From contig JAIBBS010000016.1 of the NCBI GenBank assembly GCA_019694555.1, positions 1-64,000 on the forward strand: 64,000 bases of DNA. The letters run 5' to 3'. The notes below the pieces were generated by a model, which was given only the letters and a program-made list of their open reading frames with translations, was not told the DNA's origin and did no database searches. Source of the stretch: Nannocystaceae bacterium. GTDB taxonomy: Bacteria; Myxococcota_A; Polyangia; Nannocystales; Nannocystaceae. Within the stretch, counting starts at the first letter, position 1; every line of letters begins with the position of its first letter. This document shows positions 12,381 through 51,072 of this stretch, one piece after another. The translations under genes were made by a program, and so were the position numbers.

Positions 12381-13778
12381 ATGGCGGACGACGACGAGCA
12401 GCTCCGCGCTGCGTTGGATCAGATCTGGGAAGAGCACCAGGCCGGCAAGCTCACCACCTACGAGTACAATCAGCGTCGACGCGCGCTCAAGGATGCCGCG
12501 CGCGCGAAGTCCTCGGCGGCCGCTGCCGCAGCACCGGCCGAGGCGCCCGCGCCCGAACCGACGCCCGAACCGACGCCCGCACCGACGCCCGCACCGACGG
12601 CCGCACCGGTCGGGGACGCAGCACCGGCCGAGGCGCCCGCGCCCGCGCCGGAACCCGAGCCTGCGGCCACCAGCGGCAGCACGTGGGGCGACAGCTCGCC
12701 CAAGCACTGGGGCCCCAAGGGTCGCGGCGACGATCCGTCCGTGCGTCAGGTGCTCGAGCCGCTCGCGCCGGGCATCGGCAACGGCAAGTCGTTCCTGTTC
12801 ATCTTCGGTCTGCGGATCTCGCGGGACACCGATCAGATGATGGTGCGCCGCGAGACCGAGCAGATCCAAGACGACATCGAGGTGCTGCGCAAGCACGGCT
12901 TCACCGTCGTGGTCGATCCGCAAGGCGGCAAGCAGGACTTCTTCGACGCGCTCTACGGCCAGGGCGAGGGCGTGCCGGGCCTGGTGCCCGCGGGCATCTA
13001 CTGGAGCGCGCACGGCCACGACGATGGTCGCGTCGAGTGCTGCGACGGCTCGCTGGTGGCGCCCGGCGACGTCGAGACCGCGAAGGTCTCGCCGGGCCTG
13101 CGGCTGATGGTCTTCGGCGCCTGCTACACCGGCTCGTTCGCGCGCACGTGGCGTACCGCGCTGGGCGGTCATCCGCTGGTGGTCGGTTGGGGTCGACCGG
13201 TCACGATCGATCGCGCGGTCGAGTTCCTGCAGAGCCACGAGGACACCGACACCGACTTCGACGATCTGGTCGCGCGCTACGTGCTCGCCGACACGCCGAT
13301 TCCGCCGCTGCCCGAGCAGGGCCAGCAGCCGCCCGCGATCGAGGGCGCGCGCAAGGAAGAGCTGCTGCCGCGCGTGCAGAACATCTCCGATCTGCTGAGT
13401 GCCGCGTGGCGCGAGCAGGACAACTACCTCGAGATGCGCCTGCCGCTGGCCGGCGGTCGTCGTCACGTGGTGCGGCTGTTCGTGCGCCTGGCGACCCACG
13501 AGTTTCTCGAGGGGCGCCCGCTGGTGGGCATCGAGGCCGAGGTCGGCGAGCTCAGCCGCCTGGTCGAGCCCGAGGTGTTGCTGCAGCCCATCGGCGTGCC
13601 GGGCTTCGCCCGCGTCGCGCTGGTGCGCGGCAAGAACGACATGCCCGACATCGTGGTGCAGGGCTTCCTGCCGCACGCGCACGCGACCGACACCGACGTC
13701 GCCGCGCTCGCGTACCAGGTCGCGCGCGCAGCCGACGAGCTCGAGCTGAAGATCTTCGGCTCCGATCGGCCGTACTGA
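12381..13778 (+). CDS. SHOCT-like / caspase-like (clan CD) protein
   Basis: 465 residues in three parts. Residues 8-42 (IWEEHQAGKLTTYEYNQRRR) resemble a SHOCT module, a short helical oligomerisation motif. A Pro/Ala/Glu/Thr-rich linker covers about 45-100. Residues 135-300 look like a caspase-hemoglobinase fold: FLFIFGLRIS, YWSAHGHDDG with His211-Gly, and MVFGACYTGSF with Cys248, the two positions of the clan CD catalytic pair. Residues 340-460 form a separate alpha/beta domain similar in pattern to the protein at 17676-18068. The start has AGAGG upstream (GAGAGGCACCGAG ATG). No signal peptide: cytoplasmic. Substrate unknown. Confidence 0.65.
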   Translation: MADDDEQLRAALDQIWEEHQAGKLTTYEYNQRRRALKDAARAKSSAAAAAAPAEAPAPEPTPEPTPAPTPAPTAAPVGDAAPAEAPAPAPEPEPAATSGSTWGDSSPKHWGPKGRGDDPSVRQVLEPLAPGIGNGKSFLFIFGLRISRDTDQMMVRRETEQIQDDIEVLRKHGFTVVVDPQGGKQDFFDALYGQGEGVPGLVPAGIYWSAHGHDDGRVECCDGSLVAPGDVETAKVSPGLRLMVFGACYTGSFARTWRTALGGHPLVVGWGRPVTIDRAVEFLQSHEDTDTDFDDLVARYVLADTPIPPLPEQGQQPPAIEGARKEELLPRVQNISDLLSAAWREQDNYLEMRLPLAGGRRHVVRLFVRLATHEFLEGRPLVGIEAEVGELSRLVEPEVLLQPIGVPGFARVALVRGKNDMPDIVVQGFLPHAHATDTDVAALAYQVARAADELELKIFGSDRPY

Positions 13779-13790
13779 CGCGTGGGCGCG

Positions 13791-16427
13791 ATGGGCCGCC
13801 GTCGCCTGGGGCTGGGCCTCGCGCTGGCGCTGGTCGCCTGCGTGCCGCGCTGCCGCGGCTGTGAGACCGAGGCGACGGTCGAGGGCAGCAGCGACGGCGG
13901 GCACGGCGACGTCGTGCTCGCCGATGCGAGCTGGACCGTCGAGGTCGACGACGGCGGTCGCATCCGCGTGCGCTTCAACCACGCCGATCTGCTGCTGTCG
14001 CGGTTCCGCTTCGGCGGTGCCAACGGCTCCTCGTTCGAGCCCGAGCTGCGCGAGGTCGAGACGACCGCCGATCGCGTGGCGTTCACGCTCGAGGTGCCGT
14101 CGTTGCAGTACCGCGTGCGCGTGCAGGCGTTCGCCGAGCCCCACGGCGCGCGCGTCGAGTTCGACACCCACGCCGGTGCAGCGCTGGCGGGTGTCTCGGG
14201 CGGCGGCATCCAGCTCGATCTACGACCCGACCCGCGCGTGCTGGGCACCTCGGCGGGCAAGCCCACGCTCGACGCCGAGCAACGCGGCTTCCGCTGGGAC
14301 ACCGGCCGCGGCGTGGTCTCGGTGCAGCTCGATCGCCCGCCGCCGCACTTCGCCTACGACGAGGGCGCCAACGCGGTGCAGTTCGGCTTCTACGCCGGCA
14401 GCTTGCCCGCCGGCGACCAGCACTTCACGATGCACATCGCGTTGCCCGACGACGGCAGCTGGCGTCCGGCGTCGAGCGCCCGCTATGCGCCGGTCGACCC
14501 CGCGCGCTGGCATCGCGACAGCCTGCCGTACGACGACGTGCCCGTCGATCTGTCGTTTCTCAACGACGACGACAAGCCCGCGGGCGCCGGCGGTCCGATC
14601 GCGCTCGATGCGATCGAGGGCGGCTTCGTGCGCGCGCGCGTCCGCAAGCGCTTCTGGGGCACCAACGTCGCCGCGTATGCGCTGTTCGTCGCCGACGACG
14701 CGGAGATCGACGCGCAGGCGCGACGGCTCGCGGCGTTCGGCTTCAACCTCGTGCGCATCCACCATCACGACTCGGCGTGGGTCGAGCCCAACGTGTTCGG
14801 TCGGCGCGCCGCGAGCACCAGCACGCTCGACGACGCCGCGCTCGAGCGCCTCGATCGCTGGGTCTGGGCGCTGCAGTCGCAGGGCATCTACGTGTGGCTC
14901 GACCTGCACGTCGGCCGCGTGTTCACGCCCGCCGACGGCATCGACGCCTTCGCCGAGCTCGAGGGCGGCAAGCCGCAGGGCTTCAACTACGTCAACCCGT
15001 CGATCCAGGGCGCGATGCGCCGCTTCGCGCAGCAGTACCTCGATCGCACCAACCGCTACAGCGGTCGCCGCTACCTCGAGGACCCGGGTGTGCTCGCGGT
15101 GCTGGTCACCAACGAGAACGACGTCTCGCACCACTTCGGGCACCTGATGACCGACGCGCAGCGGCGGCCCCAGCACCACGCGTGGTTCGAGGGCGCGGTC
15201 GAGGCCTTCGCCGCACGCACGCGGCTGGACATCCCGCGACCCGTCGAGCCCTGGCGCGGCGGTCCGACCAAGCTCGCGCTGGCCGATCTCGAGGCGACGT
15301 TCTTCGGCGACGCGATCACGCAGCTGCGACAGCTGGGGTGGCGCGGGCCCATCGCGACCACGAGCCTGTGGGGCGACGAGAGCCTCTACAGCCTGCCGTC
15401 GCTGACCACCGGCGACGTGATCGACGTGCACAGCTACGGCGCGCCCGAGACGCTGTCGACCAACGCCCACGTCGAGTCGCACTTCGTCCACCACATGGCG
15501 ATGGGCGCGGTCGCAGGCTTTCCCGTGACGGTGACGGAGTGGAACGTGCCGGCACCGGCGCGCGATCGCTTCGTCGGTCCGCCGCTGGTGGCCGCGACCG
15601 CGGCGCTGCAGGACTGGGACGCGATGATGCTCTACGCCTACGTGCAGAGCCCGATCGAGCCGCCGGTGAACCCCGACATCTGGTGCAGCTGGTACGACGC
15701 GGGCGTGATGGCGATGATGCCCGCGGCGGCGCTGGTGTTCCGTCGCGGCGACGTGCGCAGCGCCGAGCAACGCTACGTGCTCGCGCTCGATCGCGAGGCC
15801 GCGTGGGGCCGACCGGTGCACGCCGGCAACGCCGCGACCATCCGCACCCTGGCCGAGCGCAGCCAGCTGCGGCTGGTGCTGCCCGACACGCCCGAGCTGC
15901 CGTGGCTGCGCACCGGCACCGCGCCCGAGGGCGCCATCGTGCTCGACGACGTCGACCGCGATCACCTGCTCGCGCCGGCGACCAGCGTCGTGTCCGACAC
16001 CGGCGAGGTCACGCGCGACTGGGTCGCGGGCACGCACGTCATCGACACGCCGCGCTCGCAGATCGCCAGCGGCTGGATCGGCGGCCGCAGCGTCGAGCTG
16101 TCGTCGGTGACGATCACGATGACCACGGCCAAGGCCGCCGTCGCGATCAGCAGCCTCGACGGCGAACCCATCGCGAAATCCAAGCGCCTGCTGCTGTCCG
16201 CGGTGGCGCAGGTGGCCCCGAGCCCGGGCGTGAAGCTGCCGCTGCTCAGCGAGCCCATCGCGGGCACGGTGCTGCTGCGCTCGGATCAGCCGCGGCTGCG
16301 CGTGCGCGCGCTGGGCCGCGGCGGCGCCTCGCGAGCGCCGGTGGAGTCGCAAGCGAGCGCGGGCGTGCACACGCTGGTGCTCCCGCCCGAGGCGCCGGTG
16401 CACTTCTGGTCGATCGAAGCGCCGTGA
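13791..16427 (+). CDS. Clan GH-A glycoside hydrolase lipoprotein
   Basis: About 878 residues. Lipobox ALVAC near residue 18 follows a short Arg-rich N-terminus. An N-terminal beta-rich domain (about 30-270) precedes a TIM-barrel region. WGTNVAAYALF, FGFNLVRIHHHD and YVWLDLHVG are barrel strands. VTNEND near residue 441 carries the probable acid/base Glu and VTEWNVP near 582 the nucleophile Glu, in the order expected for clan GH-A (GH5/GH2-like). The C-terminal 200 residues are beta-rich. Expected role is polysaccharide cleavage at the cell surface; the sugar is unknown. It begins 12 nt after the caspase-like gene (GTG 13782 is an alternative start), so the two are probably co-transcribed. Confidence 0.75.
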   Translation: MGRRRLGLGLALALVACVPRCRGCETEATVEGSSDGGHGDVVLADASWTVEVDDGGRIRVRFNHADLLLSRFRFGGANGSSFEPELREVETTADRVAFTLEVPSLQYRVRVQAFAEPHGARVEFDTHAGAALAGVSGGGIQLDLRPDPRVLGTSAGKPTLDAEQRGFRWDTGRGVVSVQLDRPPPHFAYDEGANAVQFGFYAGSLPAGDQHFTMHIALPDDGSWRPASSARYAPVDPARWHRDSLPYDDVPVDLSFLNDDDKPAGAGGPIALDAIEGGFVRARVRKRFWGTNVAAYALFVADDAEIDAQARRLAAFGFNLVRIHHHDSAWVEPNVFGRRAASTSTLDDAALERLDRWVWALQSQGIYVWLDLHVGRVFTPADGIDAFAELEGGKPQGFNYVNPSIQGAMRRFAQQYLDRTNRYSGRRYLEDPGVLAVLVTNENDVSHHFGHLMTDAQRRPQHHAWFEGAVEAFAARTRLDIPRPVEPWRGGPTKLALADLEATFFGDAITQLRQLGWRGPIATTSLWGDESLYSLPSLTTGDVIDVHSYGAPETLSTNAHVESHFVHHMAMGAVAGFPVTVTEWNVPAPARDRFVGPPLVAATAALQDWDAMMLYAYVQSPIEPPVNPDIWCSWYDAGVMAMMPAAALVFRRGDVRSAEQRYVLALDREAAWGRPVHAGNAATIRTLAERSQLRLVLPDTPELPWLRTGTAPEGAIVLDDVDRDHLLAPATSVVSDTGEVTRDWVAGTHVIDTPRSQIASGWIGGRSVELSSVTITMTTAKAAVAISSLDGEPIAKSKRLLLSAVAQVAPSPGVKLPLLSEPIAGTVLLRSDQPRLRVRALGRGGASRAPVESQASAGVHTLVLPPEAPVHFWSIEAP

Positions 16428-17675: not shown

Positions 17676-18068
17676 CTACCAGTCGTCGTTGCCTTCGCTG
17701 TAGTCCTTCTCGAGCGAGTCGGCGGTGCCGGCGATCACGTGCAGCGGTCGCTCGAACTCGGCCGGGTCCATGGTCGACAGCGGCGCGTTGTGCAGCAGCA
17801 CGTAGTCCTCGTCGCTGTCGAGCGCGAGCGCTCCGATCGCGAACTCGGCGTTCTTGCGCAGGGCGATCTTCGCCGGCATCTCGGCGCCCTTGCACACCAC
17901 GCTGCGGAACTCGATCCACGACTCGTCGAACGCCTGGAAGTGGCGCACGCGGATCTTCTGCGTTCGGCCGTTGTCCATGCGGAAGACCAACGAGAAGAAC
18001 GCCTCCTCGTCGTCATCGAGGACATACTTCGAACGCGCATACTCCTGCAGCTCGGTCCAGGTCGGCAT
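17676..18068 (-). CDS. Small YbjN/CesT-chaperone-like protein
   Basis: 130 residues, no signal peptide. YARSKYVLDDDEEAFFSLVF, GRTQKIRVRHFQ, SWIEFRSVVC and FAIGALALDSDEDYVLLHN give the beta-beta-alpha pattern of the YbjN/type-III-secretion-chaperone fold, ending in an acidic helix (FERPLHVIAGTADSLEKDY). ATG 18068 gives a clean N-terminus and has AAGGGAG about 12 nt upstream. The caspase-like protein (residues 340-460) carries a similar domain. The family assignment is by pattern only. Confidence 0.5.
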   Translation of the reverse strand: MPTWTELQEYARSKYVLDDDEEAFFSLVFRMDNGRTQKIRVRHFQAFDESWIEFRSVVCKGAEMPAKIALRKNAEFAIGALALDSDEDYVLLHNAPLSTMDPAEFERPLHVIAGTADSLEKDYSEGNDDW

Positions 18069-18299: not shown

Positions 18300-18348
18300 C
18301 CCGCGACGGGGAAGCGTTGAAGCAGAGCTCGTCGGCCGATCGTGTGGG

Positions 18349-18436
18349 CGGAGAGGGCGGGATTCGAACCCGCGGTGGCGTTTTGCGCCACACATGATTT
18401 CCAGTCATGTACCTTCGGCCACTCGGACACCTCTCC
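18349..18436 (-). tRNA. tRNA-Ser (anticodon GGA)
   Basis: Acceptor GGAGAGG/CCTCTCC, anticodon stem-loop CATGA-CTGGAAA-TCATG (anticodon GGA), a long variable arm (GTGGCG...CGCCAC) typical of tRNA-Ser, T-loop GGTTCGAATCC and discriminator G. CCA is not encoded (CCC follows). Reads UCC/UCU codons. Confidence 0.96.
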
Positions 18437-18510
18437 ATGCGGATCGGCGAGAGGCGAGGGTTGGTTCGTGCGTGCTGGGTCGGGAACTGCCGACGCGAGG
18501 TCGGCTTGGG

Positions 18511-18596
18511 CGGAGAGGGAGGGATTCGAACCCCCGGAGGTTATTAGCCTCACCAGATTTCGAGTCTGGCACCTTCAACCACTCGGACACCTCTCC
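18511..18596 (-). tRNA. tRNA-Ser (anticodon CGA)
   Basis: Same GGAGAGG acceptor stem as the neighbouring tRNA. The anticodon stem-loop CCAGA-CTCGAAA-TCTGG gives anticodon CGA; long variable arm, T-loop GGTTCGAATCC, discriminator G, no encoded CCA. Reads UCG. 74 nt upstream of tRNA-Ser(GGA) and probably on the same transcript. Confidence 0.96.
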
Positions 18597-18614
18597 GTGG
18601 TCGTTGGGGCGCGG

Positions 18615-50982: not shown

Positions 50983-51072
50983 GGAGGAGTGGCCGAGCGG
51001 TCGATGGCGGCGGACTTGAAATCCGTTGTGCTCGCAAGGGTACCGGGGGTTCGAATCCCTCCTCCTCCGCCA
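50983..51072 (+). tRNA. tRNA-Ser (anticodon UGA)
   Basis: Acceptor GGAGGAG/CTCCTCC, anticodon stem-loop GCGGA-CTTGAAA-TCCGT (anticodon TGA), long variable arm, T-loop GGTTCGAATCC, discriminator G and an encoded CCA. Third tRNA-Ser of the window and the only one with encoded CCA. Confidence 0.97.

What the first reader, a model, noticed from the sequence alone, without database searches (positions are those of the whole stretch)
12381..13778. SHOCT-like/caspase-like protein with intact His/Cys pair
YWSAHGHDDG (His211) and MVFGACYTGSF (Cys248) have the HG...AC spacing of clan CD peptidases. The N-terminal 40 residues fit SHOCT, and a long Pro/Ala linker joins them. The C-terminal domain repeats a fold seen in the neighbouring 17676-18068 gene. 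SHOCT modules drive oligomerisation, which in caspases means activation, so it may be a self-assembling protease, or a toxin or effector.
Basis: partly seen in the sequence, partly recalled or inferred. Interest (0 to 1): 0.7.

Follow-up and report, generated by a model that had tools for sequence, protein, structure and literature searches.

The report
Caspase-fold protease with chaperone-like partner
This gene encodes a previously unclassified caspase-like protein of myxobacterium-type bacteria that keeps both catalytic residues and is inherited together with a small neighbouring chaperone-like protein resembling its own C-terminal domain, which suggests a two-gene regulated protease module.

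Summary
ORF 12381-13778 (465 aa) is a real gene, with close relatives (81-47% identity) in 15 other genomes of its class. His211 and Cys248 are the only His and Cys invariant in 16 aligned cores. The catalytic region matches a local Peptidase_C14 profile (E 8.5e-5; score 36, maximum 21 in 197 permutations) with both residues on the C14 dyad. The predicted fold resembles SAVED-CHAT and caspases, with moderate confidence. No Pfam, NCBIfam or PADLOC model recognises it. The N-terminal hairpin is SHOCT-like, but eight of 16 members lack it and the founding SHOCT paper's experiment did not support oligomerisation, so SHOCT-driven self-assembly is not supported. The C-terminal domain is homologous to the neighbouring 130-aa protein (17676-18068), a YbjN/type-III-chaperone-like family, which lies within 4 kb in all 16 genomes with the close form, in differing orientations and with broadly congruent trees. 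Divergent relatives include one that lost both catalytic residues and one that lost the whole catalytic domain. I read it as a vertically inherited, probably active clan CD peptidase working with a chaperone-like partner. The fold relationship is well supported; activity and mechanism are inferred. There is no evidence for a toxin.

The parts
12381..13778 (+). caspase-like (clan CD) protein, 465 aa, P0001
   Evidence: ORF and relatives at 81-47% identity across the class
12411..12491 (+). SHOCT-like helical hairpin (residues ~11-37)
   Evidence: hhalign to local SHOCT domains E 4.3e-6, score 25.5 vs permutation max 14.2; two helices in the AF2 model; absent in some relatives
12516..12728 (+). 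Pro/Ala-rich low-complexity linker (residues ~46-116), not conserved
   Evidence: alignment A1; pLDDT <50
12777..13280 (+). caspase-hemoglobinase-like catalytic domain (residues ~133-300)
   Evidence: hhalign to C14 E 8.5e-5 and to CHAT E 1.1e-3; AF2 pTM 0.68, pLDDT 67; PDB matches SAVED-CHAT and caspases
13011..13013 (+). His211, predicted catalytic, just after strand 202-208
   Evidence: invariant in 16/16 cores, aligned to C14 catalytic His
13122..13124 (+). Cys248, predicted nucleophile, just after strand 242-245
   Evidence: invariant in 16/16 cores, aligned to C14 and CHAT catalytic Cys
13338..13766 (+). C-terminal YbjN/type-III-chaperone-like domain (residues ~320-462)
   Evidence: alignment with P0002 family, bridging proteins, SycN-YscB chain 1xkp_B match Z 6.5 on a low-confidence region
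17676..18068 (-). P0002, 130-aa YbjN/type-III-chaperone-like partner
   Evidence: found within 4 kb of the peptidase gene in 16/16 genomes with the close form; CesT_Tir_1 0.0019 in 3 members

Best explanation
The gene encodes a divergent clan CD (caspase/CHAT-like) cysteine peptidase with the dyad His211/Cys248. It has an optional SHOCT-like N-terminal hairpin, a flexible linker, and a C-terminal YbjN/type-III-secretion-chaperone-like domain. It forms a two-gene module with the stand-alone 130-aa chaperone-like protein encoded at 17676-18068. Most likely (inferred) the stand-alone protein pairs with the homologous C-terminal domain, as heterodimeric secretion chaperones do, and this pair captures a peptide or client and thereby holds back or directs the peptidase. 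Shown: conservation of the dyad, sequence-profile and fold-level similarity, shared C-terminal domain, genomic linkage and co-inheritance. Inferred: proteolytic activity, physical interaction, gating, and client.
For: H211 and C248 are the only invariant His/Cys in 16 cores. The catalytic profile matches local Peptidase_C14 (score 36.2 vs permutation max 21.3) and CHAT (30.4 vs 23.7), while a response-regulator control scores 18.8. The strand/helix order of the model puts His and Cys after two consecutive core strands; the top structural match is SAVED-CHAT 8tl0 (Z 8.8, 151 aligned, rmsd 4.0), with caspases following. P0002 homologues lie within 4 kb in 16/16 genomes with the close form, convergent in f1/f5/f6 and tandem in f14, with broadly congruent trees. 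The C-terminal domain and P0002 are homologous. A relative in another class lost both dyad residues together (H to Q, C to S), and another lost the whole catalytic domain while keeping hairpin and C-terminal domain; neither has P0002 in the flanking DNA searched.
Against: The model rests on 3 sequences with mean pLDDT 67. Unrelated alpha/beta folds (response regulators, B12-binding domains) score nearly as high structurally. hhalign probability for C14 is only 60%. P0002 homologues also occur in about 50 genomes without the peptidase, so the partner has other roles. A distant member in a single-contig genome (G263) keeps the dyad without P0002. No substrate, autoprocessing site or interaction has been shown.
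Confidence: 0.55

Rival explanations
1. The 130-aa neighbour is the substrate or inhibitor of the peptidase rather than a partner chaperone, as Csx30 is the substrate of TPR-CHAT in Craspase; cleavage would release a signal.
For: Strict genomic linkage of a small protein to the peptidase; CHAT structures among the matches.
Against: P0002 is homologous to the peptidase's own C-terminal domain and matches chaperone folds; it is kept in many genomes without the peptidase.
Confidence: 0.15
2. The caspase-like domain is a non-proteolytic scaffold or binding module, with His and Cys kept for folding or metal binding.
For: Pseudo-enzyme and catalytic-domain-less relatives exist, so the remaining domains work without catalysis; no S1 pocket residue was identified.
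Against: Dyad invariant over 32-81% identity while other His/Cys vary; both residues lost together in the one degenerate relative.
Confidence: 0.15
3. A host-defence or abortive-infection module, in line with other bacterial caspase-like proteins.
For: P0002 family members match PADLOC candidate models PDC-M13A/B (best 1.9e-6) and PDC-M10A.
Against: P0001 and its relatives match no PADLOC model; fixed chromosomal context within the genus, tree follows taxonomy; no viral, plasmid or phage match in the searches made.
Confidence: 0.1
4. A type III secretion effector encoded next to its chaperone.
For: Partner and C-terminal domain resemble secretion chaperones; FHIPEP-family export genes are present in the genome.
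Against: FHIPEP is in 256 of 317 genomes, so its presence does not discriminate; the putative effector itself carries a chaperone-like domain; P0002 is widespread without it.
Confidence: 0.05

Closest known systems
Peptidase_C14 / bacterial orthocaspases (PF00656)
   Same: HG and C dyad after consecutive strands; significant profile match with dyad residues aligned
   Different: No Pfam hit; no p10-like region identified; instead a YbjN-like C-terminal domain
CHAT domain proteins (PF12770), including SAVED-CHAT and TPR-CHAT (Craspase)
   Same: Cys-motif segment GLRLMVFGACYTGSF matches the CHAT profile at 47% identity over 15 residues; best structural match 8tl0
   Different: No Pfam hit; no TPR or SAVED companion domain identified; no CRISPR or CBASS genes identified next to it
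YbjN / type III secretion chaperones / TY-Chap families (PMC9503650)
   Same: C-terminal domain and partner resemble this fold
   Different: Here the domain is fused to a peptidase and paired with a second stand-alone copy
SHOCT domain (PF09851)
   Same: Hairpin sequence pattern GxLTxxExxxxxxxL
   Different: N-terminal here and missing from half of the members; not detected by the Pfam model

Membership tests
Clan CD peptidases (caspase-hemoglobinase fold) | alpha/beta order with catalytic His and Cys after consecutive core strands | tested here: met
   AF2 element order strand-helix-strand-helix-strand-His...strand-Cys-helix-strand, pTM 0.68, pLDDT 67; matches to CHAT and caspases at Z 7-9, but other alpha/beta folds close behind
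Clan CD peptidases (caspase-hemoglobinase fold) | conserved His/Cys dyad | tested here: met
   16/16 sequences
Clan CD peptidases (caspase-hemoglobinase fold) | cysteine peptidase activity | not testable with these tools
   needs an experiment
Peptidase_C14 (PF00656) | score above the Pfam gathering threshold | tested here: not met
   no hit for P0001 or 10 relatives; only profile-profile similarity
CHAT (PF12770) | score above the Pfam gathering threshold | tested here: not met
   profile-profile score 30.4 vs permutation max 23.7
SHOCT (PF09851) | short two-helix hairpin with the SHOCT sequence pattern | tested here: met
   hhalign E 4.3e-6, two helices
SHOCT (PF09851) | score above the Pfam gathering threshold | tested here: not met
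   no SHOCT hit at E<=1
YbjN / type III secretion chaperone-like (TY) fold, C-terminal domain | 5-stranded meander flanked by helices | tested here: inconclusive
   helix, five strands with a short helix between, helix in the model, but pLDDT about 30 there; 1xkp_B Z 6.5
PADLOC PDC-M13 candidate defence system | its component models found together at one locus | tested here: inconclusive
   P0002 family hits M13A/B weakly; P0001 hits nothing; other components were not sought

The most novel reading that the evidence does not exclude
An undescribed regulated-proteolysis module in which a caspase-like peptidase is controlled by heterodimerisation between its own C-terminal chaperone-like domain and a separately encoded homologous chaperone-like protein.
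Probability: 0.35. Interest if true: 0.65.

Novelty: new variant of a known kind. Interest (0 to 1): 0.45.

Why it matters
Bacterial caspase-like proteins are studied for regulated cell death and immunity, and most are found through known domains. Here is one that no Pfam, NCBIfam or PADLOC model detects, with a clear conserved partner and natural dyad-less and catalytic-domain-less relatives. That makes the questions of activity and control directly testable, and adds a secretion-chaperone-like fold to the ways such peptidases may be regulated.

Tried and rejected
Sequence search of solved structures with one sequence or a profile gave nothing relevant. No relative in viral contigs (P0001 profile), plasmids (P0001) or phages (P0002). 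No second copy in the genome. FHIPEP presence does not discriminate the type III effector idea. Ser/Thr kinases occur near several of the loci, but I did not test this against their background frequency and did not count it as linkage. Hits to Trypan_PARP, TonB, Mediator subunit 9 and similar are linker composition matches. Literature searches found no description of a caspase-like/YbjN-like pair, in open-access papers only. The structure tool accepted only three of the relatives, so a deep-alignment model could not be made.

Full report
Observation. The ORF at 12381-13778 (+) encodes 465 aa. Homologues occur in three genomes of the same genus (81, 81 and 68% over the core), in another genus of the family, in families f5 and f6, and, with a profile, in f14 and distantly in f11. 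The genome holds one copy. In an alignment of 16 complete cores down to 32% identity, H211 and C248 are invariant and are the only invariant His and Cys. Pfam and NCBIfam give only weak hits, mostly to the linker, and PADLOC none.

Fold. The order of elements is that of clan CD, with His211 just after strand 202-208 and Cys248 just after strand 242-245. Foldseek's top hits are procaspase-8 and a pro-caspase-1 at E about 0.02, so none is significant alone. The second look ranks SAVED-CHAT 8tl0 first (Z 8.8, rmsd 4.0, 151 aligned), with caspases and metacaspase 4 around Z 7-8, but B12-binding and receiver domains are nearly tied, so structure alone does not settle it. Profile-profile comparison does more. 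Against a profile of Peptidase_C14 domains from related genomes the score is 36.2 (E 8.5e-5, probability 60%) against a maximum of 21.3 in 197 column permutations; against CHAT it is 30.4 against 23.7. A response-regulator control scores 18.8. The C14 alignment pairs IYWSAHGH with IYYSGHG and Cys248 with the C14 cysteine; the CHAT alignment pairs GLRLMVFGACYTGSF with GTELVVLSACETGVG.

N-terminus. The hairpin aligns with local SHOCT domains at E 4.3e-6, score 25.5 against a permutation maximum of 14.2. It is absent from two f5 members and all five f14 members, and the distant f11 member has an unrelated N-terminus with a weak Tudor hit: eight of 16 in all. The SHOCT paper reports that its experiment did not support oligomerisation (PMC3581485). 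The self-assembly argument therefore loses its main premise.

C-terminus and partner. P0002 (17676-18068, minus strand) has a homologue within 4 kb of the peptidase gene in every locus with the close form: 15 by tblastn plus G019, from coordinates. Gaps are often below 0.4 kb; the pair is convergent in the f1, f5 and f6 loci and tandem in f14. In the window itself two other ORFs lie between them, while in relative L039 they are about 90 bases apart. Of 317 genomes in the class, 69 have P0002, so the partner is more widespread than the peptidase. Trees of the two proteins show the same main groups following taxonomy, which suggests vertical co-inheritance rather than mobility. These genomes are related, so the 16 are not independent observations. 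P0002 members weakly match CesT-type secretion chaperones. The peptidase's C-terminal domain aligns with the P0002 family over 117 columns (score 24.0 against 22.4, a modest margin); two proteins from other families of the phylum match both profiles, which strengthens the homology. The full-length model's C-terminus matches chain 1xkp_B of the SycN-YscB chaperone complex at Z 6.5, on a low-confidence region.

Natural variants. In G462, outside the class, the relative has SSQG in place of SAHG and Ser at the Cys248 position, with a long insertion before the C-terminal domain; both dyad residues are lost together. In G238 the protein is hairpin, linker and C-terminal domain only. Neither has a P0002 homologue in the flanking DNA searched. 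G263 keeps the dyad without P0002, so the partnership is not universal.

Interpretation. A divergent, probably active clan CD peptidase working with a chaperone-like partner fits all of this. Activity, interaction and client are untested. The proposal that the partner pairs with the C-terminal domain rests on their homology and on the precedent of heterodimeric secretion chaperones (established knowledge). Rivals are given separately.

Taxonomy. Two named relatives are 'Deltaproteobacteria bacterium' MAGs; that the window is from a myxobacterium-type lineage is inference from these titles, genome size and GC.

Noticed in passing
13782-16427 (+): Large glycosidase-like lipoprotein gene lies between the peptidase and its partner here; it clusters with no ORF in the flanks of the related loci examined, where the pair is usually closer, so it looks like a lineage-specific insertion.
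   Followed up: partly
18345-18437 and 18507-18597 (-), 50983-51072 (+): Two tRNA-Ser genes (GGA, CGA) close together just beyond the partner gene, and a third tRNA-Ser (TGA) elsewhere in the window.
   Followed up: no
L168 268-2370 (-): Relative from another class with both catalytic residues replaced and a long insertion: a natural pseudo-enzyme.
   Followed up: partly
L021 1024-2913 (+): CHAT protein with a C-terminal inactive-STAND-like region (PF19995, E 0.003, below cut-off), found as a weak hit.
   Followed up: no
L108 6813-8382, L109 5299-6848: In family f12 the P0002 homologue is directly next to a protein-kinase-like gene instead of the peptidase.
   Followed up: no
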